Shown piece after piece: positions 1 through 26,381 of a DNA stretch of 64,000 bases. Each line of letters starts with the position of its first letter. The first letter of the stretch is position 1. The position numbers were made by a program, and so were the translations under genes. The stretch spans positions 806,001 through 870,000 of the forward strand of contig NZ_CP009505.1 of the NCBI RefSeq assembly GCF_000970045.1, given 5' to 3'. This DNA comes from Methanosarcina sp. MTP4. Lineage in GTDB: Archaea; Halobacteriota; Methanosarcinia; Methanosarcinales; Methanosarcinaceae. The notes below the pieces were generated by a model. It had not been told where the DNA came from, made no database searches, and saw only the letters and a list, made by a program, of their open reading frames with translations.

Positions 1-602
1 TCTCCTACTTCCTTCCAGTTGTCCTTGTTTGCGGCGTAGAGCAGCGGGTTCTTGTCCTTTACTACTTCAAGGCCTGCTTTGAGGACTGCAGGATCGAAGG
101 AACATAGGATTAAGGGGAGATCTGTTGTCTCTGCTACCTTCTTGACGGCTGCTGCGAACTTTGCGGGGTCTCCGGAGGCTGCCCTTACTGCCACACCGTC
201 GAGGAGGAGGTAGTTTCCTACATAGAACTTCCTGAAGTCAGCAATCTGCTTCACTCTCTCCACAAGGGCAGCTTCTTCCATGTTGTCTGCCACATCGAAG
301 AACATCTTTGTCTTGTTGAAGAAAGTGAGCTTGTGGCGGTACAGGACATCGTCCCCACCGATCTTTGCTGCTTTCTCGCCTACACCGATGATCACTTCAC
401 GGATTTCGGGAGCAAGGAGCCCTTCTAGTTCTGCAAGCTTCTTTGCGAACTTCTTTTCCTTAACCAGGGGTGGGCAATCTGCAGTCTTACCGGACCTGTC
501 GATCAGCTTTGATGCAAAGGCCATACAGGTGGGTTCCCCACATTCTCCACAGTTTGTCTGGGGCAGGTACTTGTAGGCTTGTAATGGGCTGTTTATTTTC
601 AT
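1..602 (-). CDS. cdhE: CODH/ACS gamma subunit CdhE (copy 1, C-terminus cut by window edge)
   Basis: Large corrinoid iron-sulfur protein subunit; with CdhD it carries the methyl group between tetrahydrosarcinapterin and the CdhC A cluster. The first ~200 residues are present; the rest lies before base 1. Cys18, Cys21, Cys26 and Cys43 form the CxxCx4Cx16C [4Fe-4S] motif. The start is the ATG at 600-602, preceded by a GGAGGTGTAAAC ribosome site that overlaps the cdhD stop region (3-nt gap). Within the visible part it is almost identical to copy 2 (11988-13397), differing by silent changes. It is the last gene of operon copy 1. Family assignment is firm because the full second copy is in the window. 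Confidence 0.95.
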   Translation of the reverse strand, partial: MKINSPLQAYKYLPQTNCGECGEPTCMAFASKLIDRSGKTADCPPLVKEKKFAKKLAELEGLLAPEIREVIIGVGEKAAKIGGDDVLYRHKLTFFNKTKMFFDVADNMEEAALVERVKQIADFRKFYVGNYLLLDGVAVRAASGDPAKFAAAVKKVAETTDLPLILCSFDPAVLKAGLEVVKDKNPLLYAANKDNWKEVG

Positions 603-605
603 TGT

Positions 606-1913
606 TTACACCTCCGCTGCGATCCAGTTGGAAATGTCAACAGGCTCTGCATCTATCGAACCGAATAGGGTCTGCGTGGCCTTCTTCAGGAAAGCAACCG
701 ATGTCGGGTGCATCATCATGAAGAGATCGTTTCCTGCAAGGGCAAGGGACAGACCAGTGACAATCTCCCAGATCGGACCTCTGTATTCTCTCGGTCCCCA
801 GTCGGAGTCTTCCTTTAGTGGAGATCCAACCATCCAGGACTCACGGGCACCCCATGCGTTGGTGGTACCTGAGGACATTGGGAAGGTCAGTTCGTCGTCA
901 CCGAGGAGGGCTGCAAGCCTGATGCGCTCCATGTTGGTGTAAGCGTAGTCGAGACCATATCCGAGGGCTGCAGTGGTCGGGTCCATGATTATCCTTTCCC
1001 TGGGCACGTTGCACTGCTTCATGAGCTTCCTGTTCAGTTCCTTCTGGGAGTTCATGTCCAGCTGTGTCCATGAAAGCACATCGTGGTCGTACTTTAATGC
1101 GGCCTCTGCGATTGCTGCATAGTCCAGGTTCAGGCTTGCAGATGCAAGGAGGCAGCGCTCGCCTTCTGCAACTTCTGCTGCTTTTGCGAGGACTTCTGGG
1201 TCCTTCTGCGGGTTCCCGGATCCACCGATCGCGATTGGCACGTCAACTGCCTGCAGGACTTCTTCTACAACCTTGGCTGCTTCCTTGGCGGGTGTGTCCT
1301 TGATGAGCGGGTCGGTTGAAATCAGGTGGATTGTGATCATGTCGGCGTTGAACTGTTCAACGTTCTTCTTTGCCCATTCTCCAGGGCTGTCCATGACTTC
1401 GTCGTAGTTCTGCTTGACAGCCTTTGCAAGGCCGATTCGCATGTCGAATACGTCGATTGTAACCTGGTTCCTGTTAGGCATCTCAGCGTCGAAGTAGAAC
1501 GGAAGGGCCTTCTCGCCACCAACGTGCACTGCCTTTCCACGGCTTCCACCGTCTGCTGATGTGTTACCTATCCTGACTTCCTGTATTGGGGTTGCCCAAT
1601 CTGCCATGTTTGCAACGTCGAATTTGGCAGGGATAAGATCCTTAAACTTCGGGGCAGCAAGGGCAGCGGCCGGGGCAGGAGCTCCTGCTCCGATACCTAC
1701 GGGGTAGCCGAACATACCTGCAATTCTTGCGAAGTGCTGGGCAAGTACTGCACTCTCCTGTCCCAGGGCTGCAGCGAGCATCGGGTCAAAGCCACCGCCA
1801 AGACCTCCCAGGTCAAGTTCAATGTCCCCTTCAATAGTAACACCTTCGAGGGCTTCTACGTCCATGCCCGCGAACATGTCTGTAATGTCAGTTAATTTCA
1901 TCTTCTTTGCCAT
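606..1913 (-). CDS. cdhD: CODH/ACS delta subunit CdhD (copy 1)
   Basis: Small corrinoid iron-sulfur subunit (435 aa, normal family length); TIM-barrel partner of CdhE in methyl transfer. The protein starts [16 protein letters not shown], then has a Gly/Ala/Pro-rich linker (about residues 70-85) before the barrel. That linker is the main point where it differs from copy 2, including a one-residue length change. The ATG is preceded by GGTGAGG, a good ribosome site. cdhE follows after 3 nt. The 183-nt gap to the upstream cooC is the largest in the operon. Confidence 0.95.
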
Positions 1914-2096
1914 GTAAACCTCACCGTTTCAGTTGATTATCCGTTTTTATGAGTGACTGAATTAATGTGATGCGTTTTTTATGGACTATAAAGATCCGCT
2001 TAAATCTCAGTTACATGCCATAGGGTCCTGTATTCTCGGAACCCCCATTTCATCCTGCAGCGTTCCACAGGTTCGTAAAATTGTTTGAAACCAGGG
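1914..2096 (-). promoter_or_regulatory. Conserved cooC-cdhD spacer with ATAAAAACG motifs
   Basis: This 183-nt spacer is far longer than the other intercistronic gaps and is kept nearly intact in copy 2 (14712-14893). On the coding strand it contains CATAAAAACGG (about 1941-1951) and a related CATAAAAAACGC (about 1971-1982), plus a CTATAAAG-type box near 1984. The same ATAAAAACG word recurs upstream of both cdhA genes. It may hold an internal promoter or an mRNA-processing site; only the sequence conservation is seen directly. Confidence 0.4.
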
Positions 2097-2858
2097 TTAG
2101 AACCCCAGTTTCTTTGCAATTTTTTCGATTTCAATCACTGCAACCGAATCCTCTGGGAGTTCGGAGAGGGGGATGCCCCCTATGTCCAGCTCCTCGACTT
2201 TCGGGTCAAGGGGGACCATGCCTATAAGGTCAAGTTTTAGATCCCCGGCAAGTTTTTCGATCTTATCGCGGTTGGCATCTGTGACCTTGTTTGCAATAAC
2301 ATGTATATTGCTAATATTTGATTCCAGTTCATCCACAAGTTCATGAATCCTTTCAGCAGTCCTGAAACCCCTTCTTGAGGCGTCTGTCACCACTATCAGG
2401 TTATCGACGTTCCGGATGATCTTCCGGCTGAAGTGCTCGAGTCCGGCTTCCGTGTCAATGACCACCACATCATAGTTGACAACAAGTTTGTCCATGATGC
2501 CCCGAAGCAGGTTGTTCACATAACAGTAGCAGCCTGCACCTTCGGGCCTGCCCATGACCAGGAGGTCGTAACCCGGCATCTCTTCAATAATCTCGTAGAT
2601 CTTACTCTGGAGTATCGATTCCTTATTCATGTCGGGGTGGTCAGGTTTCGGCTTTGTAATCTCCTCCTGGAGTGCCTCCTTTGCGTCCCCGATGGTCTTT
2701 ATTACCTCACATCCCAGGGTTTCTGGCAGGTTCGTATCCGCATCTGCGTCAACTGCAAGTAAAAAGTTGTCATTTTTAGAAAGGTAGCGGATCAAAAGAG
2801 CCGCTACCGCTGTTTTACCTGTCCCGCCTTTTCCCGTTATTGCAATAACTTTTGTCAC
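2097..2858 (-). CDS. cooC: CooC-type nickel-insertion ATPase (copy 1)
   Basis: MinD/CooC-family P-loop ATPase (253 aa), the accessory protein that helps load nickel into CO dehydrogenase or ACS. A deviant Walker A motif GKGGTGKT spans residues 9-16. The Cys110-Tyr-Cys112 pair matches the metal-binding CxC that bridges the CooC dimer, and DADADTNLP is the typical switch I region. GTG start preceded by AGAGGT. It sits between cdhC (50 nt upstream) and cdhD, the usual place in methanosarcinal cdh operons. Copy 2 differs at only four residues. Confidence 0.92.
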   Translation of the reverse strand: MTKVIAITGKGGTGKTAVAALLIRYLSKNDNFLLAVDADADTNLPETLGCEVIKTIGDAKEALQEEITKPKPDHPDMNKESILQSKIYEIIEEMPGYDLLVMGRPEGAGCYCYVNNLLRGIMDKLVVNYDVVVIDTEAGLEHFSRKIIRNVDNLIVVTDASRRGFRTAERIHELVDELESNISNIHVIANKVTDANRDKIEKLAGDLKLDLIGMVPLDPKVEELDIGGIPLSELPEDSVAVIEIEKIAKKLGF

Positions 2859-2908
2859 AGAATACCTCTTTTGAATTGTTTTTCTGTTTTAGAGCACCTG
2901 CGTGTCAC

Positions 2909-4318
<1,410 letters not shown>

Positions 4319-4343
4319 TTATGCTTCGCCTCCTAAATCAAAT

Positions 4344-4856
4344 TTATAAGTTCTCGATTAGTTCATCCAGGGCAACGTAGTGGTCTTCCCTGCTTATGTT
4401 CCCGAAGGACATTGTTGCGTTCTGGATGTAGTCTCTACCGATTGAAATTGCTTTCAAGTTGGAGAAGTTCTTAGTTCCGGACAGTACCTGGTTGATGTAG
4501 TACTTCTTGAATTCCAGGACGATAACCATGTCGTAGTTTCCGTTCCCATCAATTCCGGGCCAGTTGGGGTCTGTTAAGTAGAACCCGAGCTGGTGCACAT
4601 TGATGTACTTGGCATCTACGTCCTTGTCCAGGAATCCTACGTGAGAGTGACCTGTGGCAGCGATCGGAAGGTTCGCCTTCTGTGCAATCTTAACTGCACG
4701 GTCCAGAAGTTCGGGCTTAAGGATTCCGGATCCGACCACAAGAAGTGGCCTCTTTGCCTTTTTGATCATCTTGGCTGCCATGTCCGGGTTGATTGCCTTG
4801 GAGGTGGTTACTCCGTAGCTGGTAAAGAGCTTGGTGTTCTTTGTAGTGTCAACCAT
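4344..4856 (-). CDS. cdhB: CODH/ACS epsilon subunit CdhB (copy 1)
   Basis: 170-aa epsilon subunit, Rossmann-like, bound to CdhA in the alpha2epsilon2 CO dehydrogenase unit; thought to help electron transfer to FAD/ferredoxin. It begins two bases after the cdhA stop, and its AAGGAGG ribosome site lies inside the cdhA 3' end, so the two are translationally coupled. It differs from copy 2 at 21 of 170 residues (88% identity), including a cluster around residues 69-74, far more than cdhC or cooC do. Confidence 0.94.
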
Positions 4857-4858
4857 TT

Positions 4859-7273
4859 TCAGGCCTCCTTGCAGAGTCTCTTGAGGTTAGTGGGCTGTGC
4901 CGAGACGTCGAACTTGATCTTCGGACCGGAGATGATCTTCTTCCTCTTCCAGTCGATTTCCCAGCCCTGTTCCTCTTCAAGTTTCTTCATGAGGGCAGCA
5001 CGCTTGGCAAGTGGGATATCAGCCTCACTCCTGATGAATTTCCACCAGTCCTCGGGCAGTCCGCCGATGTACTTATCGTGGAGTTCCATCCAGTGGGTCA
5101 GTTTGATAGACCTTCCCAGGTTGTTGTCAGACGGGCGGATGCAGGCTTTTGCCATCATCGGGGTTGCTTCCTGCCAGGTCTCTGCGGTGGTCAGGAGGAA
5201 TTCCGGTGCTGGTGGGATTGGCATTTCTTCGCCGTTCCTGGCATCGTAGACTTTCCACTTGGATTCGTCATAGTCCTTTGCGATCAGGGCTCTCCTGTAC
5301 TTGGAACTGTGGGCACCGAGCACTGCGGGGATACCGTAGATGTTACATCCGGTACCGATGGAAGATGCTTTCTGGGAGAATGCACCCCATGCAAGACCGC
5401 AGGCACCAACACGGTTCAGGACATAGTCAGCGATTTCTGCGAGGTTGCCTTCCATGGTCCTGCCACCGAAAATACCGGCGACTTTCTGGGCGGCTCCGGT
5501 GATGTGGGCGTTCGAGACACAGGACCCGATGTTAACAAGTCCACCGGATACGAATCCGCCGGGGAACCTCTCATAAAGGGTCTCGCCATTCTCGTCCTTG
5601 TACATACCCATATCCATTGATCCACAGCCGGTACCGACAACGATGTAGTTCCTCTTCAGGAACTCTTCTGCGATGTAGTAAACACCCTTGGCGCAGTCAG
5701 AGTAGTTCGGACATCCGATGATTGCGATGATACCCGGGGTTGTACCCATGACCAGATTCAGGCCTTCGGAACGGATTTCTGCGTCGGATACCTGTCCTCT
5801 GCCGGCTCTCATCCAGCCTTTCTCCTCGGCGATGATCTTCTGGGATGCCTTCTCGATAACACTGAGGATTGGGATTTCCTTCTTACAGACCTGTTCGCAG
5901 CGGCGGCAGCCGATACATGCGTCGTGGAGTTCTTCAAGGTAGCTGTAGTCTCCTTCCTTGGCGAACTTCATGGCTTCCGGAATGTCCAGCTCGATCGGGC
6001 AGGCCAGGTAGCAGGCTCCACAGTCGGCACACTTGTCAACCCATTCCTTCATCTGTTCATCGGATGGGATTTCCCTGACTCCTGCTGCTTCGCGGATCGG
6101 GTGCATTTCCTGGGCGAGCCTTACGGAGATTTCTCCGAGCTTCTCGTAGTCAAGGATCACACAACCCGGAATTGCTCCGGACTTGAGTTCCTCGATGGTC
6201 GCATCGACGTCCTGGTTGTCCCTGTTGGGCAGACCGTACATGATCTTGGCGTTGGATGCAATCACAGGGATATTGAGCTTCTGGGCTTCGGGTACAATGT
6301 CTCCACGGACACACTGTTCGTCAACAACAATGACGTCAGGCATTCCGGAGCGGATGATCTTGAGCTCCTTGGACATGGAACCGACGACCTTGGTGTATGG
6401 GGGCCTCCTGTCGGCTTCCTTGTACCTGGTCAGGTCGATTGCGGTACAGCAGAGTCCACCGAGTTCCACCTTGTCGGTCAGCTCATTTTCTTCCATGTAG
6501 TCCATCATGTAGGTGACACCGGCCACGTTGTGTCCGATCACACAGAGGAATGGCTTCTCCTTGTCAATAGTCCCGATACCCATTTCAATAAGTGGGGCTT
6601 CGGGGTCTGCCTTGGGGAAGTCGAGGGCTGCGATCTGTACGATATCGGAAATTTCCATTCCGACGTGGTCCAGACTGCCGCTGAAAAGAGCCTTTGAGTC
6701 GTAGTCGATCTCTGCGGATTCCTGCCCTGCGTGGATGGTTGCAAGGAGCTGGGTGAGCTGTTCCTCTGCGTGTTCCATTGCAGGCTTGATTTCCCCGAGG
6801 GTCTTGGGGCTCTGCCCGGTTGTGATCGTGATGTTGGGGGTCAGGACGTCGGATTGTCCAAGGTCAAGTGGGACGTCTTCGCCAAAGGTCTCGAGCAGGT
6901 GGTCAAGCAGGTGACGACCGTGGGCTGCGTGGCAGGCAGTACCGGTGATCACACGGAGGAAGAATTCCCTGCCGTTGTGTCCGGCCATGTCAATACCACA
7001 GGCACCTCTCTTGTTGTTGGAGAGGTCACAGGGGCCGTATGTGCAGTAGCAGCACTGGTCACACATTGGGGTGATTACGGGCTCATAACGGTCGAGTAAT
7101 TTGAGGTTCCAATCGTCCCTGTAGGTTGCAAGACCCGGGAACGGGGATGGGCCCATTGGACCGAGCTCTTCTGCTTCGGCAGCTTCCTTTGCTGCCCCCA
7201 CAATGTTGTTAATTGTGATCTGAACATCTTTCAGATCTTCTATAGAAAAACTCCCGGTAGTTAATTTACTCAT
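4859..7273 (-). CDS. cdhA: CODH/ACS alpha subunit CdhA, CO dehydrogenase (copy 1)
   Basis: 804-aa Ni-Fe CO dehydrogenase. Seen in order: N-terminal B/D-cluster cysteines (Cys71, 74, 77, 82, 92); C-cluster candidates His248, Cys275/276, Cys321, Cys550, Cys585 and Cys643; an inserted two-cluster ferredoxin domain (Cys415/418/421/425 and Cys453/456/459/463) typical of archaeal CdhA. ATG with TTTAGGAGG upstream. First gene of the operon. Against copy 2 it has 77 differences (90% identity), 20 of them within residues 525-604 around Cys550 and Cys585. In that stretch it has Ser576 where copy 2 has Cys, and a NYSDCAKG segment where copy 2 has NYIGGSKD. Confidence 0.96.
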
Positions 7274-7382
7274 TTTAGCTTTGCCTCCTAAATACGCTTA
7301 AAGCCGATTTGTCAGAGGATTGTATTTACGATATTCGGCATACCGATACTGACTGTGCAATTTATATTGATGTCTGCTTGAA

Positions 7383-7586
7383 AGTTCCAACTATTCAAAT
7401 GACATTTTTAGTAAATCGTTTTTAAATTTTTATAGAACTTGCACACTTACAGTTCCAACTATTCAAATGACATTTTTAGTAAATCGTTTTTAAATTTTTA
7501 TAGAACTTGCATACTTACAGTTCCAACTATTTAAATGACATTTTTAGTAGATCGTTTTTAACTTTTCATAGAATTTACACACTTTC
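7383..7586. repeat. Three tandem 68-bp repeats upstream of cdhA copy 1
   Basis: Units start at 7383, 7451 and 7519, each 68 bp. The first two are nearly identical; the third has several changes. Read on the cdhA strand, each holds TTCTATAAAAATTTAAAAAC or a close variant, which combines a TATA-like box with the AAAAACG word. The array lies 110-313 bp before the cdhA ATG, within the distance over which cdh leaders and promoters are known to act in Methanosarcina. A promoter role is inference. Confidence 0.85.
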
Positions 7587-7968
7587 AATACAAAATCAAG
7601 TACTGTAAATTAAGCAGTTAAAACTTGAATTTTTAGAGATTTTAGAGTTCACTGCTTTTGTTTTAGATCTCAAGTGGGTAAGTCCTATAATAGCCGTTGC
7701 GATCTCAGAATAAATAAAAGAGATCTTAGAGACTATCCGAAAAGTTCTATGCATGTTGTAAAATCACAATTAGGCAATCGGTGCGTATTATCCGGAATCC
7801 GTTCATTTATGATCGCCAATTGTAGAATTTACAGTAGGTTACAGCACTTTTCGAACATACTCCTAAATTACACATGAGCGACGTATTATAAATAATTTAC
7901 ACTTTTGTTCTGTATAAATATAAAAATAATAAAAAATTCCTTTGTATAAATCTTATCTAAACTCTTAC

Positions 7969-8025
7969 AAGTCATTGACTCGTGAACAAGTCATTGACTC
8001 GTGAACAAGTCACTGACTCGTGATG
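7969..8025. repeat. 3 x 19-bp tandem repeat
   Basis: AAGTCATTGACTCGTGAAC repeated at 7969, 7988 and 8007, the last copy with one change. The duplicated spacer copy (near 9130) holds only a single degenerate unit, so the array expanded or contracted after the duplication. Confidence 0.8.
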
Positions 8026-8370
8026 AAGCATGAACTACGGCACTATATACTCATTTTTCATAAGAAATGAACATGAAATTATTCGAATAAGATGTAAAAC
8101 GAAAGTACCAGTGATTAGCAGAACTTTTACGTTAAATCAGGTGTAAAAGGCAGAAAATAACCACAGGACTAACGGACATATGATACAAAACTATTAAGTA
8201 AACGTCATAGTTATAATCGCATTTTATGCAGTTATGAGTTTAATGCTATTGGTTTTGTACTTAAAATACATAATCCTAAAATGGATTCAGAGCTTATTTA
8301 TTTTCTCAATAATTTAATTGTTGTAGCATTAATTATTTATACTACCTCTCATTTGCGTATTTTGACGGTT

Positions 8371-8571
8371 TATTGAGTTAAGTGAAGTATCAAGAATCCC
8401 AAAAGCTACTTATTACAAACTCAGTGAAATTCCGCTAGTGTTCTCGTAATTATTAACGTGTCCCTGAAAGAGCTGAGGTATTCGTCTTTGAGGCCTTCTT
8501 CAGGTAGAGCAGACTGAGGCTGCTGACAGAATGGAGGTATCCCGGAAAACTTTCTGGAACGGTCTCCAAAA
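8371..8571 (+). pseudogene. DUF134-type gene, 5' fragment (remnant A)
   Basis: Matches the 5' half of the gene at 10631: GAGTTAAG, the Pro-Lys-Ala-Thr-Tyr-Tyr-Lys stretch, and the GVSRKTFW helix-turn-helix region are recognisable, but frameshifts and stops interrupt it. It ends abruptly after CTCCAAAA, where sequence related to the start of cdhA (opposite strand) begins. It is therefore half of a rearrangement junction. Confidence 0.7.
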
Positions 8572-8716
8572 GTCCTGGGAAAAGTTTGGGGCCTGCTTTA
8601 CGAGCTCCTTTGCTTTTTCTTCAGCAGCCTCCTTTGCTGCCCCTACAAAATTATTGATAGTTATCTGAAAGGATTCAAGATCTTTATATAAAAAATCAGG
8701 TAGTTAATTTGCTCAT
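8572..8716 (-). pseudogene. Relic of a third cdhA 5' end
   Basis: Read on the minus strand from ATG 8714-8716 the sequence gives MSKLTT, the exact CdhA N-terminus. After restoring one lost base it continues [20 protein letters not shown], clearly homologous to CdhA residues 13-33, and then diverges ([14 protein letters not shown]). The leader and ribosome site seen at both intact cdhA genes are missing: the sequence passes from AGCTTTA directly into the end of a 68-bp-type repeat unit. It differs from both intact copies, so it is not a recent copy of either. Confidence 0.8.
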
Positions 8717-8754
8717 TTTAGCTTTATTAACTTTTTATAGAACTTGCACACTTA

Positions 8755-9703
8755 CAATACAAAATCAAGTACAGTAAATTAAGCAGTTAAAACTTGAGTT
8801 TTTAGAAAGTTGGGAGTTCACTGCTTTTGTTTTAGACCTCAAGTGGGTAAGTCATATAATAGTAAGTTGCGATCTCACAGAAATAAGAGATCTTAGAGAC
8901 TACCCGAAAAGTTCTATGCATGTTGTAAAATCACAATTAGACAATTAGTGTTTATTATCCGGAATCCGTTCATTTATGATTCGCTTATTGTAGAATTTAC
9001 AGTAGGTCACAGCACTTTTTGGATAGACTCTTAAATTACACTTAAGCGACGTGTTATAAATAGTTTTCACTTTTGTTTGGTATAAATATAAAAATACAAA
9101 AAATTCCGCCGTATAAATCCTATCTAAACTCTTAAGGGTCGTTGACTCGTGATGAAGCATGAAAAACGGCATCATATACTCATTTTTCATAAGAAAATAA
9201 CATGAAATTATTCGAATAAGATGCAAAACGAAAGTACCAGTGATTAGCAGAACTTTTACGTTAAATCAGGTGTAAAAGGCAGAAAATAACCACAGGACTA
9301 ACGGACATATGATACAAAGCTATTAAGTAAACGTCATAGTTATAATCGCATTTTATGTAGTTATGAGTTTAATGCTATTGGTTTTGTACTTAAAATACAG
9401 AATCCGAAATATGGGTTCAGAGCTTATTAATTTTGTCAATAGTTTAATTGTTTCAGAGTTAATTATTTATACAACATCTCATTTGCGTATTTTGACTGTT
9501 TATTGAGTTAAGCGGAGTATCAAGAATCCCAAAAGCTACTTATTGCAAACTCAGTGAAATTCCGGGAAGTGTTTTCGTAATTATTAACTTGTCCCTGGAA
9601 GAGCTTGAGGCATTCGTCTTTGCGACCTTCTCCAGGTGGAGCAGAATAAGGCTGCTGACGTAATGGGGGTATCCCGGAAAACTTTCTGGAAATACCTCCA
9701 AAA
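8755..9703. repeat. Spacer duplication, copy B (partner at 7586-8571)
   Basis: Second copy of the ~1 kb spacer segment, beginning CAATACAAAATCAAG. It lies directly upstream of the third-cdhA relic in the same relation as copy A lies to intact cdhA-1, and it runs into a longer DUF134-type pseudogene. This shows that the ancestral unit was cdh operon, leader, AT-rich spacer, DUF134 gene. Confidence 0.85.
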
Positions 9704-9990
9704 TGCACGACAGAAGGCAGCTGACGCTTTTGTCAACGGAAAAACTATTGAGATCTCTGGAGGAGAATACGTTAATAGTGGTGAATGCAAGATCGATTTT
9801 CTCTGCAAAGAATGCGATCATATGTGGGAATTAAAGTCTAACTAGCGTCGTCCCGCAAGCTGTCCTAATTGTGATTCCGGTCGAATTTTCCGAATTGGCA
9901 GCGATGGAAGATGAAAGAGGTTTATTGAGAATGATTACTGATGTCTAAAAAAAGGGAAAGCAGCAGGAACACTAATGAAGGAAGCATAAA
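9501..9990 (+). pseudogene. DUF134-type gene, frameshifted full-length remnant B
   Basis: Homologous over nearly its whole length to the gene at 10631. A 69-codon open stretch (9636-9845) preserves GVSRKTFW, the NGKTIEISGGEYVN segment and the CKECDHMWELKS zinc-ribbon half, then stops prematurely where the intact gene reads Lys-Ser-Asp-Gln. Upstream, the PKATYYK-equivalent segment is in a different frame. Downstream, CPNCDS and RIGSDGR are still readable but contain stops. Confidence 0.75.
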
Positions 9991-10222
9991 AAAGATGCAG
10001 GAAGCAGACTGGGATAGAGAATATTGAAACTTAGAGGATTTCATGCCTCAATGCGCAGTCCGGAAATAAAAATCTGCCGAATGTAACTGCAGCTCAAGAT
10101 TTCAGAGGAAAATTCATGCCAGTATTTATCGAAATCAAGAATTTAGTTGCAGATTTGAAAAATCTAGATGTAAAACTTATTCAGCGTCTTTATACACTAA
10201 AAGGAAGCTATTAAAGTACTGG

Positions 10223-10447
10223 ATGGACTTATTTATCAAATTTAATATAATTTTGAAAAAAATAGAGGGTCTTTTTTCTTGTCCGATATGTAACTATAAT
10301 GGGCCTCTTTTAAATATTAGGCTCAGGCAAGATCTCTGCCCAAACTGCGGTTCAGTAGAGAGTTATAGACTTCAATTTCTGGTATTCCAGAAACTATGTA
10401 GGCACTACGATATTTCTCAAATGTCTATACTACACGTTTCACTATAA
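10223..10447 (+). pseudogene. N-terminal fragment of a zinc-ribbon methyltransferase
   Basis: 74 codons containing CPICNYNGP and CPNCGSVESYRL followed by SILHVS. This resembles the opening of SAM-dependent methyltransferases found in polysaccharide loci, where a CxxC...CPxCGSxERHRL ribbon precedes the KVLHxAPE Rossmann start. The reading frame ends just where the Rossmann fold should begin and no continuation is seen, so it looks like a truncated gene. Function is from remembered family patterns and is moderate at best. Confidence 0.5.
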
Positions 10448-10630
10448 ATTTTTTTCCAAATTATTCTGAGATTCCTGGTTTGATGGCATTCCAGCTGAGT
10501 ATATACTTTTAGCGTTATTATGGTATTTTGTGTTTACTCTCACTCCTTAATGCCGATGTTAAGGTCAATACTTTAAACGCGTTGCGTAAAATAGATAGAT
10601 ACTTATTACGTGTTGTATAAGTGTAGTTTG

Positions 10631-11164
10631 ATGGTCAATAGAGTTAAGCGCAGGGTATCTTGCTTTCCAAAGGCCACCTATTACAAGCCTAGAGAAATCC
10701 CTCTTTGCTGTCTGGAAATTACCAACCTATCTATAGAAGAGCTTGAGGCTATTCGTCTTTGCGATTTTCTCCAGATGGAGCAGAGTGAGGCTGCTAACAG
10801 AATGGGAGTATCCCGGAAAACTTTCTGGGGCGACCTCCAAAAGGCAAGACAGAAGGTGGCTGAGGCTCTTGTCAACGGAAAAGCGATCGAGATATCTGGA
10901 GGGGAATACGTTAATAGTGGTGAATGCGAGGTCGATTTTCTCTGCAAAGAATGCGATCATGTGTGGGAATTAAAGTCCGACCAGCTTCGTCCCACAAGCT
11001 GTCCGAATTGTGGTTCCAGTCTAATTTTCCGAATAGGCGGTGATGGAAGAGGAAAGAGGTTTATTGAGAATGATTACTGTTGCCCTAAAAAAAAGGAAAG
11101 CAGAAGGAATACAGGTGAAGGAAGCAAAAAAAGTGACAATAATAGCTATATCATTGATGAGTGA
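10631..11164 (+). CDS. DUF134-family DNA-binding protein
   Basis: 177 aa. The N-terminus is the DUF134 pattern: RRVSCFPKATYYKP, then LSIEELEAIRLCD, a helix-turn-helix SEAANRMGVSRKTFWGDL (sigma-70 region 4-like) and KVAEALVNGKAIEI. A zinc ribbon follows (CKECDHVW...CPNCGSS). The Lys/Ser/Asn-rich tail after FIENDYCCPKKK runs over the start of a NifX-like fragment in another frame and may itself be out of frame. Family members are uncharacterised putative regulators often beside NifX/NifB-like proteins. This is the only intact one of three copies in the spacer. ATG 10631 is chosen to match the family start; an upstream ATG at 10610 adds seven residues. Confidence 0.75.
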   Translation: MVNRVKRRVSCFPKATYYKPREIPLCCLEITNLSIEELEAIRLCDFLQMEQSEAANRMGVSRKTFWGDLQKARQKVAEALVNGKAIEISGGEYVNSGECEVDFLCKECDHVWELKSDQLRPTSCPNCGSSLIFRIGGDGRGKRFIENDYCCPKKKESRRNTGEGSKKSDNNSYIIDE

Positions 11165-11240
11165 TACTGGACTTGAGTCTGATGTATGTGCCCATTTTGG
11201 CTCATGCGAACATTTTACCATTGTAGATGTATGTGATTGA
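11133..11240 (+). pseudogene. Truncated NifX/NifB-type (dinitrogenase FeMo-co) domain
   Basis: GTG 11133 opens VTIIAISLMSDTGLESDVCA followed by HFGSCEHFTIVDV, the beginning of the dinitrogenase iron-molybdenum cofactor domain (small metallocluster-binding proteins). A stop comes after 35 codons, where a ~110-residue domain would be expected. Such proteins commonly follow DUF134 genes in methanogens, which fits the position here. Confidence 0.6.
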
Positions 11241-11935
11241 TGTATAATATCAAGCACAATAAATATTATTGTTTAAATTTTCGTTTTGGACATTAAAAGC
11301 TTGTTACTCCGTTTTTCAATTCAAATGCGTAAGTCCTATACTTAATACCTCTATTTTTTCGATCAACTAATTCTATAATTAAGATAGCATGCTTACTTGC
11401 GTATAAGGAACTAATTGTTTGGAAAAAAAATCAATCGTTTACCCAAGATTGGACTTAATTAGAAAAATTGATCTGGCAAGAGTCTTTCTTCTTTTTATAG
11501 GGGATAATTGTCTGGTATCTATTAAGGTTCCGAATATCAATTCTGCACGTGCAGACGTTGAGTAACTTCTTAGTTGAGGCTTAAACGGTCAATCAAAGTT
11601 TAGCTGGCGCATTCGTGCAAGCAAAGTAACTTTTTCATGTCAAAGAAGTTTTTTCGGTCCAGTAGAAACCTTGTTGTATTGATGAAAAGGTTCCTGTTTG
11701 TGACCGGGTTCGATTTCAGTTTTCAAACATATATACAAAAAAGTTGAAGAAATAATTTGCATTAATTGAGGATTTCTACAGAGCCAATTATTTGGATGTT
11801 TATTTGGATGGAAAAAACAAAGCAAATCTGTATGGTATTAAGGCAAAAAAGTCGATTTTTATGTAACTTTTCTCTTCAATTCAGAGCCTGTCAGGAAAGT
11901 CGACAACTGCGTTTTGTAAAAGTTTCAATAAACTT
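11241..11935. other. Gene-free AT-rich spacer
   Basis: 695 bases between the NifX-like fragment and the end of operon copy 2. Short open frames here (for example 11640-11825 minus, 11766-11966 plus) have no ribosome site and no recognisable motifs. I see nothing that can be supported as a gene. Confidence 0.6.
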
Positions 11936-11962
11936 TATTCCGTGTCAGAGTGACACGGAATA
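11936..11962 (-). terminator. Hairpin downstream of cdhE copy 2
   Basis: TTCCGTGTCA and TGACACGGAA form the core of a perfect 12-bp stem with a 3-nt GAG loop, 25 nt past the cdhE stop. On the minus strand it is followed by AT-rich sequence without a long U run. It is probably a transcription stop or a 3'-end stabilising structure for the operon mRNA. Confidence 0.65.
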
Positions 11963-11987
11963 TTAATATTCAAATTTGTTTTTGTAT

Positions 11988-13397
11988 TTACTGCGGTGGC
12001 CAGTTCTTTTCCATCCAGCCGGGGATACGGCCGGAGTCCATTGGGCCTACCTTGATGCTTGCACTGAGTGAGTCCTCAAGGTCTCCCTGCAGGCGAGCTG
12101 ACAGACCCGGAATGATCACGGTGTTGTGTTTGACGTCCTTCTTAAGGTCGAAGTCTGACTTATCAAAGGCGTCCTTTACCTTGTCGGCGGTCAGCTGGCC
12201 ACCGGCAACGGCAGCTTCCACGCCGATACCGTCGGTGTCAACTGCAAGCAGCCAGCAGTCTATTCCGTTGGATGCAATGTCGCTCTCTACCGTGTAGTAG
12301 GTAAGGGCGAAGTTCGTGGTGAAGAACACCGGAGAGTCTGCTGTCGGGCTTCCTACCTTGTACATAGCACCGTCAACGGCTACAGGGGTCCTCGGGTCAG
12401 TGTAGATGGTGTCTACCAGGTGCATCTCAGGCAGGACGGCATATGGCTCCATGCTGTGCAGGATCATTATGTCGCCGTATCTGATGGTGAACATTGAAGC
12501 CATCACGGTTTCCCAGTATGATGCACTTACAGGGTCCTCGATTCCTGCCATCCAGGCTGTGAACGGAAGGGCCAGTATCGGGTAGGCAATCTCGACGTCC
12601 CCATCGATTCCTGCTCTCCTGATCTTCAGGAAGTTGGTGAATGTGTCCTTCAGTCCCTTGCCTACCGGAACGGTTCCGGGGTCAAGGACAATGTCCTGAA
12701 TGCCTGCCTCGGCTAAGGTCTTTGCGAGGGTCTTGAGGGCATCAAGGTCATTGAGGGCAGAAACTACCACAGGCACCTTGTACTCAAGGGCAAGTTCTCC
12801 TACTTCCTTCCAGTTGTCCTTGTTTGCGGCGTAGAGCAGCGGGTTCTTGTCCTTTACTACTTCAAGGCCTGCTTTGAGGACTGCAGGATCGAAGGAACAT
12901 AGGATTAAGGGGAGATCTGTTGTCTCTGCTACCTTCTTGACGGCTGCTGCGAACTTTGCGGGGTCTCCGGAGGCTGCCCTTACTGCCACACCGTCGAGGA
13001 GGAGGTAGTTTCCTACATAGAACTTCCTGAAGTCAGCAATCTGCTTTACTCTCTCCACAAGGGCAGCTTCTTCCATGTTGTCTGCCACATCGAAGAACAT
13101 CTTTGTCTTGTTGAAGAAAGTGAGCTTGTGGCGGTACAGGACATCGTCCCCACCGATCTTTGCTGCTTTCTCGCCTACACCGATGATCACTTCACGGATT
13201 TCAGGAGCAAGGAGCCCTTCTAGTTCTGCAAGCTTCTTTGCGAACTTCTTTTCCTTAACCAGGGGTGGGCAATCTGCAGTCTTACCGGACCTGTCGATCA
13301 GCTTGGATGCAAAGGCCATACAGGTGGGTTCCCCACATTCTCCACAGTTGGTCTGGGGCAGGTACTTGTAGGCTTGTAATGGGCTGTTTATTTTCAT
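11988..13397 (-). CDS. cdhE: CODH/ACS gamma subunit CdhE (copy 2)
   Basis: Complete 469-aa large corrinoid iron-sulfur subunit. The N-terminal [4Fe-4S] motif uses Cys18, Cys21, Cys26 and Cys43 (NCGECGEPTC). A TIM barrel follows and then the C-terminal corrinoid-binding region, ending EKNWPPQ. It accepts the methyl group from methyl-tetrahydrosarcinapterin and passes it to the A cluster. ATG preceded by GGAGGTGTAAAC; 3-nt gap from cdhD. Last gene of operon copy 2, followed by a strong hairpin. Confidence 0.96.
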   Translation of the reverse strand: MKINSPLQAYKYLPQTNCGECGEPTCMAFASKLIDRSGKTADCPPLVKEKKFAKKLAELEGLLAPEIREVIIGVGEKAAKIGGDDVLYRHKLTFFNKTKMFFDVADNMEEAALVERVKQIADFRKFYVGNYLLLDGVAVRAASGDPAKFAAAVKKVAETTDLPLILCSFDPAVLKAGLEVVKDKNPLLYAANKDNWKEVGELALEYKVPVVVSALNDLDALKTLAKTLAEAGIQDIVLDPGTVPVGKGLKDTFTNFLKIRRAGIDGDVEIAYPILALPFTAWMAGIEDPVSASYWETVMASMFTIRYGDIMILHSMEPYAVLPEMHLVDTIYTDPRTPVAVDGAMYKVGSPTADSPVFFTTNFALTYYTVESDIASNGIDCWLLAVDTDGIGVEAAVAGGQLTADKVKDAFDKSDFDLKKDVKHNTVIIPGLSARLQGDLEDSLSASIKVGPMDSGRIPGWMEKNWPPQ

Positions 13398-13400
13398 TGT

Positions 13401-14711
13401 TTACACCTCCGCTGCGATCCAGTTGGAAATGTCAACAGGCTCTGCATCTATCGAACCGAATAGGGTCTGCGTGGCCTTCTTCAGGAAAGCAACCGATGTC
13501 GGGTGCATCATCATGAAGAGATCGTTTCCTGCAAGGGCAAGGGACAGACCAGTGACAATCTCCCATATCGGGCCTCTGTATTCTCTCGGGCCCCAGTCGG
13601 AGTCTTCCTTGAGTGGTGATCCAACCATCCAGGACTCACGGGCACCCCATGCGTTGGTGGTACCTGAGGACATCGGGAAGGTCAGTTCGTCATCACCCAT
13701 AAGGGCTGCAAGCCTGATACGCTCCATGTTGGTGTAAGCGTAGTCGAGACCATATCCGAGGGCTGCAGTGGTCGGGTCCATGATTATCCTTTCCCTGGGC
13801 ACGTTGCACTGCTTCATGAGCTTCCTGTTGAGTTCCTTCTGGGAGTTCATGTCCAGCTGTGTCCATGAAAGCACATCGTGGTCGTACTTTAATGCGGCCT
13901 CTGCGATTGCTGCATAGTCCAGGTTCAGGCTTGCAGATGCAAGGAGGCAGCGCTCGCCTTCTGCAACTTCTGCTGCTTTTGCGAGGACTTCTGGGTCCTT
14001 CTGCGGGTTCCCGGATCCACCGATCGCGATTGGCACGTCAACTGCCTGCAGGACTTCTTCTACAACCTTGGCTGCTTCCTTGGCGGGTGTGTCCTTGATG
14101 AGCGGGTCGGTTGAAATCAGGTGGATTGTGATCATGTCGGCGTTGAACTGCTCAACGTTCTTCTTTGCCCATTCTCCTGGGCTGTCCATGACTTCGTCGT
14201 AGTTCTGCTTTACAGCCTTTGCAAGGCCAATGCGCATATCGAATACGTCGATTGTAACCTGGTTCCTGTTCGGCATCTCAGCGTCGAAGTAGAACGGAAG
14301 GGCCTTCTCGCCACCAACGTGCACTGCCTTTCCACGGCTTCCACCGTCTGCTGATGTGTTACCTATCCTGACTTCCTGTATTGGGGTTGCCCAATCTGCC
14401 ATGTTTGCAACATCGAATTTGGCAGGGATGAGATCCTTAAACTTCGGGGCAGCAAGGGCTGCTGCTGGTGCAGCGGCTGCAGGGCCTCCGATGCCTACGG
14501 GGTAGCCGAACATACCTGCAATTCTTGCGAAGTGCTGGGCAAGTACTGCACTCTCCTGTCCCAGGGCTGCAGCGAGCATCGGGTCAAAGCCACCGCCAAG
14601 ACCTCCCAGGTCAAGTTCAATGTCCCCTTCAATAGTAACACCTTCGAGGGCTTCTACGTCCATGCCCGCGAACATGTCTGTAATGTCAGTTAATTTCATC
14701 TTCTTTGCCAT
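13401..14711 (-). CDS. cdhD: CODH/ACS delta subunit CdhD (copy 2)
   Basis: 436 aa, one residue longer than copy 1 because of a changed Gly/Pro/Ala linker (about residues 74-85). Otherwise nearly identical at both protein and DNA level, and the upstream GGTGAGG ribosome site is also retained. Same role: small subunit of the corrinoid methyl carrier. Confidence 0.95.
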
Positions 14712-14893
14712 GTAAACCTCACCATTTCAGTTGATTATCCGTTTTTATGAGTGACTGAGTTAATGTGATGCGTTTTTTATGGACTATAAAGATCCGCTTA
14801 AATCTCAGTTACATGCCTGAGGGTCCTGTATTCCCTGAACCCCATTTCATCCTGCAGCGTTCCACAGGTTCGTAAAATTGTTTGAAACCAGGG
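14712..14893 (-). promoter_or_regulatory. Conserved cooC-cdhD spacer (copy 2)
   Basis: Matches 1914-2096 with a handful of substitutions, including both ATAAAAACG-type words. Conservation of noncoding sequence equal to that of the coding genes fits recent copying or gene conversion; on its own it does not prove function. Confidence 0.4.
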
Positions 14894-15655
14894 TTAGAAC
14901 CCCAGTTTCTTTGCAATTTTTTCGATTTCAATCACTGCAGCCGAATCCTCAGGGAGTTCGGAGAGAGGGATGCCCCCTATGTCCAGCTCCTCGACTTTCG
15001 GGTCAAGGGGGACCATGCCTATAAGGTCAAGTTTTAGATCCCCGGCAAGTTTTTCGATCTTATCGCGGTTGGCATCTGTGACCTTGTTTGCAATAACATG
15101 TATATTGCTAATATTTGATTCCAGTTCATCCACAAGTTCATGAATCCTTTCAGCAGTCCTGAAACCCCTTCTTGAGGCGTCTGTCACCACTATCAGGTTA
15201 TCGACGTTCCGGATGATCTTCCGGCTGAAGTGCTCGAGTCCGGCTTCCGTGTCAATGACCACCACATCATAGTTGACAACAAGTTTGTCCATGATGCCCC
15301 GAAGCAGGTTGTTTACGTAACAGTAGCAGCCTGCACCTTCGGGCCTGCCCATTACCAGGAGGTCGTAACCCGACATTTCTTCAATAATCTCGTAGATCTT
15401 ACTCTGGAGTATCGATTCCTTATTCATGTCGGGGTGGTCAGGTTTCGGCTTTGTAATCTCCTCCTGGAGTGCCTCCTTTGCGTCCCCGATAGTCTTTACT
15501 GCCTCACATCCCAGGGTTTCTGGCAGGTTCGTATCCGCATCTGCGTCAACTGCAAGTAAAAAGTTGTCATTTTTAGAAAGGTAGCGGATCAAAAGAGCCG
15601 CTACCGCTGTTTTACCTGTCCCGCCTTTTCCCGTTATTGCAATAACTTTTGTCAC
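14894..15655 (-). CDS. cooC: CooC-type nickel-insertion ATPase (copy 2)
   Basis: 253 aa; same P-loop (residues 9-16) and Cys110/Cys112 as copy 1. The four differences (Glu-Val-Ile to Glu-Ala-Val near residue 52, Pro95 to Ser, Val to Ala near residue 238) avoid the nucleotide and metal sites. GTG start with AGAGGT ahead. Nickel-loading partner of CdhA/CdhC. Confidence 0.92.
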   Translation of the reverse strand: MTKVIAITGKGGTGKTAVAALLIRYLSKNDNFLLAVDADADTNLPETLGCEAVKTIGDAKEALQEEITKPKPDHPDMNKESILQSKIYEIIEEMSGYDLLVMGRPEGAGCYCYVNNLLRGIMDKLVVNYDVVVIDTEAGLEHFSRKIIRNVDNLIVVTDASRRGFRTAERIHELVDELESNISNIHVIANKVTDANRDKIEKLAGDLKLDLIGMVPLDPKVEELDIGGIPLSELPEDSAAVIEIEKIAKKLGF

Positions 15656-15705
15656 AGAATACCTCTTTTGAATTGTTTTTCTGTTTTAGAGCACCTGCGT
15701 GTCAC

Positions 15706-17115
<1,410 letters not shown>

Positions 17116-17140
17116 TTATGTTTCGCCTCCTAAATCAGAT

Positions 17141-17653
17141 TTATAAGTTCTCGATTAATTCATCCAGGGCAGCATAGTTGTCTTCCTTGCTGATGTTCCC
17201 GAAGGACATTGTTGCGTTCTGGATGTAGTCTCTACCGATTGAAATTGCTTTTACGCTGGAGAAGTTCTTAGTTCCGGACAGTACCTGGTTGATGTAGTAC
17301 TTCTTGAAACCAAGGACGATAACCATGTCGTAGTTGCCTTTTTCGTCAAGTCCGGGCCATTTCGGGTCGGTTAAGTAGAACCCGAGCTGGTGGAGGTTGA
17401 TGTAACTGGCATCCACGTCCTTGTCCAGGAATCCGGGGAGTGAACTTCCGGTAGCTGCAATCGGAAGGTTTGCCTTCTTTGCAATCTTGACTGCGCGGTC
17501 CAGGAGTTCGGGCTGAAGGACACCGGTCCCGACCACAAACAGAGGCCTCTTTGCCTTGGAGATCATCTTGGCTGCCATGTCCGGGTTGATTGCCTTGGAG
17601 GTGGTCACCCCGTAGCTGGTAAAGAGCTTGGTGTTCTTTGTAGTGTCAACCAT
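17141..17653 (-). CDS. cdhB: CODH/ACS epsilon subunit CdhB (copy 2)
   Basis: 170 aa, 88% identical to copy 1; the changes include SSLPG versus HSHVG near residue 70 and GFKK versus EFKK near residue 115. Starts two bases after the cdhA stop with its ribosome site inside cdhA. Electron-transfer partner of CdhA-2; its divergence parallels that of its cognate alpha subunit. Confidence 0.94.
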
Positions 17654-17655
17654 TT

Positions 17656-20070
17656 TCAGGCCTCCTTGCAGAGTCTCTTGAGGTTAGTGGGCTGTGCCGA
17701 GACGTCGAACTTGATCTTCGGACCGGAAATGATCTTCTTCTTCTTCCAATCGATTTCCCATCCATGGTCTGCTTCAAGGACCTTGAGGAGGTCTGCACGC
17801 TTGGCAAGCGGGAGGTCGGCTTCGTTCCTGATGAACTTCCACCAGTCTTTCGGCCTTTCCCCGAGGTACTTCTCGTGGAGTTCCATCCAGTGGGTCAGTT
17901 TGATTGACCTTCCCATGCTGTTGTCGGACGGGCGAATGCAGGCCTTTGCCATCATCGGGATTGCTTCCTGCCAGGTCTCTGCGGTTGTCAGGAGGAATTC
18001 CGGTGCTGGTGGGATTGGCATTTCTTCGCCGTTCCTGGCGTCGTAGACTTTCCACTTGGATTCGTCATAGGTCTTAGCTATCAGGGCTCTCCTGTACTTG
18101 GAACTGTGGGCTCCGAGCACTGCGGGGATACCAAGGATGTTACATCCGGTGCCGATGGAAGATGCTTTCTGGGAGAATGCACCCCATGCAAGGCCACAGG
18201 CTCCGACACGGGATAGGGTGTAGTCGGCGATTTCTGCAAGGTTGCCTTCCATTGTCCTGCTGGCGAAGATACCGGCGACCTTCTCGGCTGCTCCGGTGAT
18301 GTGGGCGTTCGAGACACATGACCCGTTGTTGAGAAGTCCACCACATTCGAATCCACCGGGGTACTTCTCGTAGAGGGTCTTGCCGTCTTCGTCCTTGTAC
18401 ATACCGATGTCCATCGCACCACAGCCGGTAACGGCCACGATGTAGTTCCTTTTCAGGAATTCTTCTGCGATGTAGTAGACGTCCTTGGAACCGCCAATGT
18501 AGTTCGGACATCCGATGATCGCGATGATACCCGGGGTTGTACCCATGACAAGGTTCAGACCTTCAGCACGGATTTCTGCGTCGGATACCTGACCTCTGCC
18601 GGCTCTCATCCAGCCCTTCTCCTCGGCAATCAGCTTCTGGGAAGCTTTCTCGATAACACTGAGGATGGGGATTTCCTTCTTACATACCTGTTCGCAGCGG
18701 CGGCAGCCGACACATGCGTCGTGGAGGTCCTCAAGGTACGAGTAGTCTCCTTCCTTGGCGAACTTCATGGCCTCGGGGATGTCCAGCTCAATCGGACATG
18801 CCAGGTAACAGGCACCGCAGTCGGCACACTTGTCGACCCATTCCTTTAACTGCTCGTCACTCGGGATTTCCCTGAAGCCCTCTGCCTTGCGGATCGGGTG
18901 CATTTCCTGGGTCAGCCTTATGGTGAGCTCTCCGAGCTTCTCGTTGTCCAGGATCACACAACCCGGGATCGCTCCGGACTTGAGTTCCTCAATGGTTGCA
19001 TCGACGTCCTGGTTGTCCCTGTTGGGCAGGCCGTACATGATCTTGGCATTGGATGCAATCACAGGGATCTTAAGCTTCTGGGCTTCGGGTACGATGTCTC
19101 CACGGACACACTGTTCGTCAACAACAATGACGTCAGGCATTCCGGAGCGGATAATCTTGAGTTCCTTGGACATGGAACCGATGACCTTGGCGTATGGGGG
19201 TCTCCTGTCAGCTTCCTTGTACCTGGTCAGGTCGATTGCGGTACAGCAGAGCCCGGCGATTTCCATCTTGTCGGTCAGGTCGTTTTCTTCCATGTAGTCC
19301 ATCATGTAAGTGACACCGGCCACATTGTGTCCGATCACACAGAGGAAGGGCTTTTCCTTGTCAATGGTTCCCATGCCGATTTCAACGAGGGGGGCTTCGG
19401 GGTCTGCCTTCGGGAAGTCGAGGGCTGCGATCTGCACAATATCGGAAATTTCCATTCCTACGTGGTCCAGGCTGCCGCTGAAGAGAGCCTTTGAGTCGTA
19501 GTCGATCTCTGAGGATTCCTGCCCTGCGTGGACGGTTGCAAGGAGCTGGGTTAACTGCTCTTCTGTGTGTTCCATTGCAGGCTTGAGTTCCCCGAGGGTC
19601 TTGGGGCTTAACCCGGTTGTGATTGTGATGTTCGGGGTGAGCACGTTGGACTGTCCAAGGTCGAGGGGGACATCTTCGCCAAAGGTTTCGATCAGGTGGT
19701 CAAGCAGGTGGCGGCCGTGGGCTGCGTGGCAGGCAGTACCGGTAATCACACGGAGGAAGAATTCCCTGCCGTTGTGTCCGGCCATGTCAATACCACAGGC
19801 ACCTCTCTTGTTGTTGGAGAGATCACAGGGGCCGTATGTGCAGTAGCAGCACTGGTCACACATAGGGGTGATTACAGGCTCATAACGGTCAAGGAGCACA
19901 AGGTTCCAGTCGTCCCTGTAGGATGCCAGACCCGGGAATGGGGTCGGGCCCATCGGACCGATCTCTTCTGCTTCGGCAGCTTCCTTTGCTGCCCCCACAA
20001 TGTTGTTAATTGTGATCTGAACGGATTCCAGATCTTCTATAGAAAAACTCCCGGTAGTTAGTTTGCTCAT
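17656..20070 (-). CDS. cdhA: CODH/ACS alpha subunit CdhA, CO dehydrogenase (copy 2)
   Basis: 804 aa with the same cluster-binding cysteines as copy 1: N-terminal B/D site, His248, Cys321, the two-cluster ferredoxin insert at 415-463, and Cys550, Cys585 and Cys643. The region around the C cluster reads [19 protein letters not shown] and GGFECGG, close to what I recall for characterised Methanosarcina CdhA. Start placed at ATG 20068-20070, which has AGGAGGTAAAG just upstream and matches copy 1; a longer frame to 20124 would bury that ribosome site. First gene of operon copy 2. Confidence 0.96.
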
Positions 20071-20450
20071 CTGAGCTTTACCTCCTAAATTTGTTTTGAG
20101 TCTACTTCGCTGAAATGATTGCAAATTTTTGCATAGTCCGGCCTATCCTTAACGATTATAAATTACAAATTTTGCTTTAAACTTTACATTTCCAATCGTC
20201 TGGTCCGAACTTAATTGCAAAACGTTTTTATCGCTTTTTCAAATATTCGTTCCTTAACTGAACGTTTTTCCCAACTAAAACGTTTTTTTGGAAGTATATT
20301 TGGTCAAAACTCGTTTTTAGGGCTTTATTTTTCTAAATTTTCTGTTTTTATGCCCTTTTCTCTTAAAAACCGTTTTTACCAGCGATTGTGACCTGAATTT
20401 TTAGAAAGAGATCACTACCGATGGATAATAAACACTAATTAACGGTGTAA
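20071..20450 (-). promoter_or_regulatory. cdhA-2 leader/promoter region with repeated AAAAACG words
   Basis: Gene-free. Read on the cdhA strand it holds AAAAACG or a near match at about 20223, 20263, 20281, 20312, 20343 and 20371. A TATA-like TTTATAATCG lies at about 20152-20164, 85 bases from the ATG. The sequence is unrelated to the cdhA-1 leader except for this word, which also recurs in the 68-bp repeats there. Suggests a shared regulatory element, but the AT-rich background makes chance matches possible. Confidence 0.4.
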
Positions 20451-20819
20451 ATGTGCCAAATCTATATAATATTTTCTAATTTGTTACACCCTATTTCGGG
20501 ATTGGCAAAGTGCAAAAAGTCCGTTCTCTGTCTGTATGGAAATTAATGTTTTGTAAATATGGATCATAGGGAGCAAGTCCGCATGATGATGATTTTCAAA
20601 AAAGCTATGTTTGAGTATGAATAATCTTTATTATAATATTATTTTTTCCTGTATATCTTTTACTTATTTATCATTTGATGTAAATAATTCTCCTAATATT
20701 TCTTATTCGGAAATATATTTTAAATTAGAATGATATTCAATCGAATTATCATTCCGTATATATACATTTCACTTAATTTACATGTTTTCTATAAAATTTG
20801 CTCTAATGAAATTACCAAA

Positions 20820-22880: not shown

Positions 22881-23069
22881 TTCTATTAATTATATATTAC
22901 ACCACATAAAATTGTATATTACGTTACATCATTAGCGGGTTGATTTACGTTTCCGGGATTTCCGATCCCTATATGAAGAACCTCTTGGTCCTGACCCATT
23001 TCGAACGGTATGGCCGGGGTTCAGGTTCGGAATTGCCTGATGATGCAAATCTTTACTACATAAAAGAAA

Positions 23070-26247: not shown

Positions 26248-26381
26248 TTCAGCACCCATATCCTTCACATCCCTGAATATTTTTCTTTTTAAATTTTTAT
26301 TAACTTTATGGACATTCTTCTTTTTGGATTTTCATTAACTTTATGAATTCTTCTTGATCTTATGGATTCGTATTATCCTCA

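What the first reader, a model, noticed from the sequence alone, without database searches (positions are those of the whole stretch)
1..20070. Two complete cdh operons in direct tandem
Six genes in the same order and strand are repeated with a 12.8 kb period. To my knowledge, sequenced Methanosarcina with two cdh operons usually carry them far apart. Tandem placement makes the copy number unstable through unequal crossing-over and could allow rapid dosage change of a central catabolic enzyme.
Basis: partly seen in the sequence, partly recalled or inferred. Interest (0 to 1): 0.75.

Follow-up and report, generated by a model that had tools for sequence, protein, structure and literature searches.

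The report
Ancient tandem CO-dehydrogenase/acetyl-CoA-synthase operon pair
This methanogen carries two complete copies of its acetate-splitting enzyme operon side by side; the pair is old and shared with relatives, and within it the front genes stay different while the back genes are kept nearly identical.

Summary
Two cdhA-B-C-cooC-D-E operons lie head-to-tail on the minus strand, period ~12.8 kb, in a finished 4.21-Mb genome from a genus sister to Methanosarcina. A third cdhA-cdhB-only locus lies 0.87 Mb away.

It is neither an assembly artefact nor a fresh duplication. The same arrangement, at the same site, occurs in another species of the genus and in two Methanosarcina. Seven complete or near-complete Methanosarcina genomes have the pair far apart.

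The copies are mosaics. Leaders are locus-specific: an 'R' leader beside a rhomboid gene and a 'D' leader beside a DUF134 gene, two old clades across three genera. cdhA-cdhB belong to four old allele groups that have swapped between loci. cdhC-cooC-cdhD-cdhE are homogenised within each genome (100% over ~5 kb in relative G001, next to 79% in cdhA). Leader-tail pairs are swapped between tandem and dispersed states, the footprint of a crossover linking them.

CODH/ACS duplication is known; I found no description of the tandem state or of half-operon concerted evolution in the open-access papers searched.

The parts
1..602 (-). cdhE copy 1 ('in' operon), N-terminal part; the gene continues left of the window to -807
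606..1913 (-). cdhD copy 1 (corrinoid Fe-S protein subunit)
   Evidence: 98.9% aa to copy 2
2097..2858 (-). cooC-like nickel-insertion ATPase, copy 1
2909..4318 (-). cdhC copy 1 (acetyl-CoA synthase beta)
4344..4856 (-). cdhB copy 1 (epsilon); allele group IIb
4859..7273 (-). cdhA copy 1 (CO dehydrogenase alpha); allele group IIb, orthologous to the 'in' copy of G001 (95.3% nt)
7274..7673 (-). D-type leader of copy 1 (one of two old leader clades, shared by 16 DUF134-linked operons)
7383..7586 (.). three head-to-tail 68-nt repeats inside the D leader
7555..9994 (.). decayed 1.13-1.17-kb repeat units in the spacer, with a cdhA N-terminal relic (about 8584-8726, -) and DUF134 relics (about 8387-8584 and 9609-9962, +)
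10610..11164 (+). DUF134 (helix-turn-helix) gene, divergent from copy 1; linked to every D-leader operon found
11790..11987 (-). D-type 3' tail behind cdhE copy 2, with terminator hairpin CCGTGTCA..TGACACGG at about 11940-11959
11988..13397 (-). cdhE copy 2 ('out' operon)
13401..14711 (-). cdhD copy 2
14894..15655 (-). cooC-like ATPase, copy 2
15706..17115 (-). cdhC copy 2
17141..17653 (-). cdhB copy 2; allele group IIb
17656..20070 (-). cdhA copy 2; IIb-like body joined to the R leader at the start codon; 3cf4-like alpha subunit
20071..20470 (-). R-type leader of copy 2, belonging to a different clade from the D leader
21793..23896 (+). rhomboid, 141-aa ORF and NYN genes that mark the upstream side of the ancestral cdh site

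Best explanation
The locus is an ancient pair of CODH/ACS operons, not a recent duplication. One (R) sits at the family's ancestral cdh site between rhomboid/NYN genes and ATP-grasp/TFE/proteasome genes. The other (D) travels with its own leader and a divergent DUF134 gene. Here, and in at least three relatives, D sits directly 3' of R. Each operon has separately evolving modules: a locus-specific leader and promoter; an exchangeable cdhA-cdhB cassette (CO dehydrogenase alpha/epsilon); and a cdhC-cooC-cdhD-cdhE block that recombination keeps alike within the genome. Crossovers inside the shared block can excise or collapse D, giving the single-operon and dispersed states in relatives. Functionally (inferred) the cell gets two differently regulated CODH variants built on one common acetyl-CoA-synthase/corrinoid core.
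For: Shown: (1) same tandem, same order, same flanks in G000, G001 and G097, and across contigs in G096. (2) Within-genome identity: cdhA 73-95% against cdhC-E mostly 96-100%; in tandem G001 cdhC-E is 100% including third positions, while cdhA third positions are 62.5%; sharp step at cdhB/cdhC. (3) Trees: within-genome cdhC-E pairs are sisters at 100/100 whereas cdhA falls into old clades spanning genera; AU tests reject a D-locus clade for cdhC-E (p 2e-7) and for cdhA (p 2e-40), with at least 10 locus switches on the cdhA tree. (4) Leaders split cleanly into 16 D (99/98) and 24 R. (5) In tandem G000, G001 and G096 the R-leader operon carries the D tail, and in G000 and G001 the D-leader operon the R tail. 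(6) G000-out, G081 and G083 switch from R-like to IIb-like sequence at the cdhA start codon. (7) D operons in dispersed genomes have at least five different downstream neighbours but always DUF134. Single-operon G003, G079, G081, G083, G087, G098 and G103 lack a close DUF134 relative.
Against: The direction of change is not proven: internal junction sequence between the D tail and DUF134 is not shared between the two genera, so repeated integration next to R is possible. G097's out tail does not match the D tail. Three genomes where no D operon was found (G075, G086, G088) carry a more distant DUF134 relative (72-74%). Differential regulation and a shared ACS core are inferred; no expression or biochemical data exist for this organism. 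G096 is joined across contigs. The recombination mechanism (gene conversion or repeated crossovers) is inferred from sequence.
Confidence: 0.78

Rival explanations
1. Recent tandem duplication in this lineage by unequal crossing-over, with later divergence of cdhA-cdhB under relaxed or positive selection.
For: cdhC-E are 97-99% identical in this genome, and both cdhA copies fall in the same clade IIb.
Against: G001 shares the tandem with cdhA copies in different clades (IIb and III); G000's in-copy is 95.3% to G001's in-copy but 89.6% to its own neighbour; leaders belong to two clades older than the genera.
Confidence: 0.07
2. The dispersed state is ancestral; the tandem formed several times when a circularised D operon integrated by a single homologous crossover into the R operon, which would always give the same order and swapped tails.
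For: Tail swap fits integration as well as excision; a homologous target gives the same site every time.
Against: Needs precise circularisation joining D tail to DUF134 several times; D sites differ among dispersed genomes, easier to explain by repeated departures from one ancestral site.
Confidence: 0.3
3. Assembly artefact: one operon or two distant operons falsely joined.
For: The repeats are long and similar, and several draft relatives break exactly inside cdhB/cdhC.
Against: Single-contig genome, 5.5% divergence between copies, a unique spacer, and the same arrangement in independent assemblies G001 and G097 where both operons lie on one contig.
Confidence: 0.03
4. cdhC-E identity reflects strong purifying selection rather than recombination.
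For: These are core catabolic proteins.
Against: Third codon positions are 100% identical within G001, yet cdhC-E differ by 4-9% nt between G000 and G001, and within-genome pairs are sisters.
Confidence: 0.02

Closest known systems
Cdh1/Cdh2 CODH/ACS (ACDS) isoforms of Methanosarcina acetivorans (Matschiavelli et al. 2012, cited in PMC4652020; cdh1/cdh2 expression in PMC12918732)
   Same: Same six genes; two operons per genome; in G074 they are the R operon and the DUF134-linked D operon
   Different: In M. acetivorans (G074, contig length as C2A) the operons are megabases apart on opposite strands; here they are adjacent
CdhA3 orphan subunit of M. acetivorans (proposed CO sensor, PMC4652020)
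   Same: An additional cdhA outside the main operons
   Different: The extra locus here is cdhA plus cdhB and is a deep outgroup (about 71% nt), whereas the third M. acetivorans copy (G074c) groups within clade III beside its own R copy
Long-lasting concerted evolution of mtmB/mtmC/mtbB/mtbC and mtrA in methanogens (PMC6053082, PMC4632066)
   Same: Within-genome homogenisation of methanogenesis paralogues, recurrent across species
   Different: cdh is not mentioned in either text; here only the 3' two thirds of an operon are homogenised while the 5' genes and leaders stay distinct
ACDS alpha subunit structures, PDB 3cf4 chain A and 9c0q
   Same: CdhA copy 2 aligns over residues 1-807 of 3cf4 without large gaps
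   Different: Not a structural novelty; only gene organisation differs

Membership tests
CODH/ACS (ACDS) cdh operon of Methanosarcinaceae | genes for alpha, epsilon, beta, CooC, delta, gamma in this order | tested here: met
   Pfam Prismane/CODH, CO_dh, CdhC/ACS, CbiA-type ATPase, CdhD, CdhD+FeS for copy 2; copy 1 by tblastn
CODH/ACS (ACDS) cdh operon of Methanosarcinaceae | all reading frames intact in both copies | tested here: met
   (the stop reported lies upstream of the cdhA ATG)
CODH/ACS (ACDS) cdh operon of Methanosarcinaceae | active enzyme with CO dehydrogenase and acetyl-CoA cleavage activity | not testable with these tools
   alignment to 3cf4 only
Recent tandem duplication | the two copies are each other's closest relatives throughout | tested here: not met
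   cdhA, cdhB and leader of copy 1 are closer to G001 than to copy 2
Concertedly evolving paralogue pair | paralogues in one genome closer to each other than to orthologues, including synonymous sites | tested here: met
   met for cdhC-cooC-D-E; not met for cdhA, cdhB and leader
Actively amplifying tandem array | copy number varies between cells or strains | not testable with these tools
   no reads available; only states of one or two operons among species were seen

The most novel reading that the evidence does not exclude
The cdh operon behaves as a cassette system. Two fixed regulatory sockets (R leader and D leader with DUF134) receive exchangeable cdhAB cassettes drawn from at least four old allele groups, swapped at the start codon, while a shared cdhC-cooC-cdhDE core is continually homogenised. 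The tandem is a recombination-capable form from which the D unit has repeatedly been excised and relocated or lost, and DUF134 is a dedicated regulator of the D socket.
Probability: 0.4. Interest if true: 0.72.

Novelty: new variant of a known kind. Interest (0 to 1): 0.55.

Why it matters
CODH/ACS is the key enzyme of methane formation from acetate, and why Methanosarcina keep two operons is unresolved. The data turn this into a testable question. The copies differ mainly in leader and CODH alpha/epsilon, so these modules, not the ACS core, should carry any functional difference. The locus also gives a natural record of crossover, conversion and collapse between long repeats in an archaeal chromosome.

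Tried and rejected
Recent duplication (contradicted by leader and cdhA trees). Purifying selection alone (third positions). Assembly artefact (independent assemblies). Rfam families in 1-24000: no match at E<=0.5, so no known RNA element in leaders or spacer. The genus-g4 MAG G008 looked like a further tandem because D-tail-like sequence lies beside DUF134, but its contig begins in simple repeats without cdhE: inconclusive. The spacer cdhA fragment as a leader peptide gene: rejected, frame broken within a few codons. Papers: no hit for DUF134 function in Methanosarcina and none for cdh gene conversion; the library holds open-licence papers only, so absence is weak. The primary 2012 cdh isoform paper is not held.

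Full report
What is there. The window lies at 806001-870000 of a finished single-contig genome of 4,211,468 bases, in a genus of four held genomes sister to Methanosarcina. Both operons read cdhA-cdhB-cdhC-cooC-cdhD-cdhE on the minus strand. I call copy 1 'in' (its cdhA faces the spacer) and copy 2 'out' (its cdhA faces the rhomboid gene). The repeat spans 8160 bp at 94.5% identity once sequence left of the window is included. The genome has exactly two cdhE and three long cdhA, the third with only cdhB beside it at 1.68 Mb.

How common. Of the family genomes searched, G001 (same genus) and G097 (Methanosarcina sp. STD2_179) have both operons on one contig about 12-12.5 kb apart. G096 (Methanosarcina sp. 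KYL-1) has a contig reading cdhC-cdhB-cdhA-spacer-cdhE (in coordinate order), which fits a tandem. In G074, G076, G077, G078, G080, G082 and G104, all assemblies of one or two contigs, the two operons lie 0.29 to >1.6 Mb apart.

One site, two operons. In nearly all genomes with enough flank one operon sits between rhomboid/h141/NYN/DUF1464/ACT/PaaK and ATP-grasp/TFE/HD/PsmB/CPSF (these short labels are mine from sequence, only rhomboid, NYN, ACT and DUF134 were checked with Pfam). The second always has a DUF134 gene divergent from its cdhA at roughly 2-4 kb, but in dispersed genomes its other neighbours differ: IS605-type transposase, OMP decarboxylase (two genomes), TPP enzyme (two genomes), AAA ATPase, FMN oxidoreductase. 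In tandem genomes the order is rhomboid - out operon - 0.7-0.9 kb - DUF134 - spacer - in operon - ATP-grasp.

Three evolutionary regimes in one operon. Leaders (400 nt before the cdhA start) form two clades, 16 D and 24 R, matching DUF134 linkage and rhomboid-site linkage (the orphan cdhA of M. acetivorans falls with R). cdhA forms four old clades (I, IIa, IIb, III), each spanning more than one genus except IIa, that are mixed between R and D loci (D clade rejected, p 2e-40, at least 10 switches). cdhB mostly follows cdhA. cdhC-cooC-cdhD-cdhE pairs are sisters within each genome, 100/100 (D clade rejected, p 2e-7). Identity steps from about 80% to 97-100% at the cdhB/cdhC boundary in G001 and G097, and from about 90% to about 97% in G000. 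Exceptions exist: G080's cdhB is 100% identical while its cooC is 92%; G078's cooC is 82%.

Crossover footprints. Tails: the out operon of G000 and G001 and the tandem contig of G096 continue past the terminator into sequence shared with the D tails of dispersed genomes (G080b, G082a, G078a, G104a), while the in operons of G000 and G001 continue into the R tail shared with G003a, G083, G082b and others. Leader plus tail pairs are therefore exchanged between the tandem and dispersed states, as expected from one crossover inside cdh. Starts: G081 and G083 (one operon each) and G000-out match the R leader up to the cdhA start codon and the IIb type shortly after it. For G081 and G083, which also lack the close DUF134 relative, this is what collapse of a tandem near the cdhA start would leave; conversion of the cassette is an alternative. 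G094 has a D-leader operon with R tail beside ATP-grasp and other genes (LysE family) beyond DUF134, possibly an interrupted tandem.

Spacer. Between the in cdhA and DUF134 lie three 68-nt repeats and decayed 1.13-1.17-kb units with cdhA and DUF134 pieces. Similar relics occur in G001, G002, G084, G094 and G096, so the D leader region duplicates repeatedly.

Read depth. No reads are available for this genome. In the genus-g4 MAG STD2_68, contig titles give coverage 54.9 for the contig holding the cdhA end to cdhE and 32.5 and 30.2 for the two cdhA contigs, as expected if cdhB-E are two collapsed near-identical copies.

Mechanism, with steps marked. Shown: two old loci, exchangeable cdhAB, homogenised cdhC-E, swapped tails. 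Inferred: homogenisation by gene conversion or repeated crossover; excision and relocation of D; tandem ancestral (about 0.6). Inferred from protein knowledge: alpha and epsilon form one subcomplex, which would explain why cdhA and cdhB move together while the ACS and corrinoid subunits can be shared. Not shown: expression differences, DUF134 function, present-day instability.

Novelty. Two cdh isoforms are long known (PMC4652020, PMC12918732). Concerted evolution is known for other methanogen genes (PMC6053082, PMC4632066), neither of which mentions cdh. The tandem arrangement and split evolution of the operon were not found in the papers searched, a library limited to open licences. I rate it a new variant of a known kind.

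Species names for G handles other than those given by record titles are my inference from contig length (G074 as M. acetivorans C2A).

Noticed in passing
L016 8841-11895 (genome 1.679-1.682 Mb): Third CODH locus with cdhA and cdhB only, about 71% nt to the main copies and a deep outgroup; G003 has a similar one. In G000 a Schlafen/AlbA_2-domain gene follows, and G003 has a related ORF there. Unlike M. acetivorans CdhA3.
   Followed up: partly
window 7383-9994: Repeated decay and duplication of the D leader with cdhA N-terminal and DUF134 fragments; similar relics in G001, G002, G084, G094 and G096.
   Followed up: partly
window 10610-11164: DUF134 protein (HTH plus CxxC motifs) linked to every D-leader cdh operon even where the operon has moved: candidate regulator.
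   Followed up: partly
L091, L017, L024 (MAG STD2_68): Coverage in contig titles (54.9 against 32.5 and 30.2) suggests collapsed duplicate cdhB-E in a third genus.
   Followed up: no
window 21118-21272, 26279-26497, 30376-30510: Short imperfect tandem repeats in intergenic regions beside the locus (self-BLAST).
   Followed up: no
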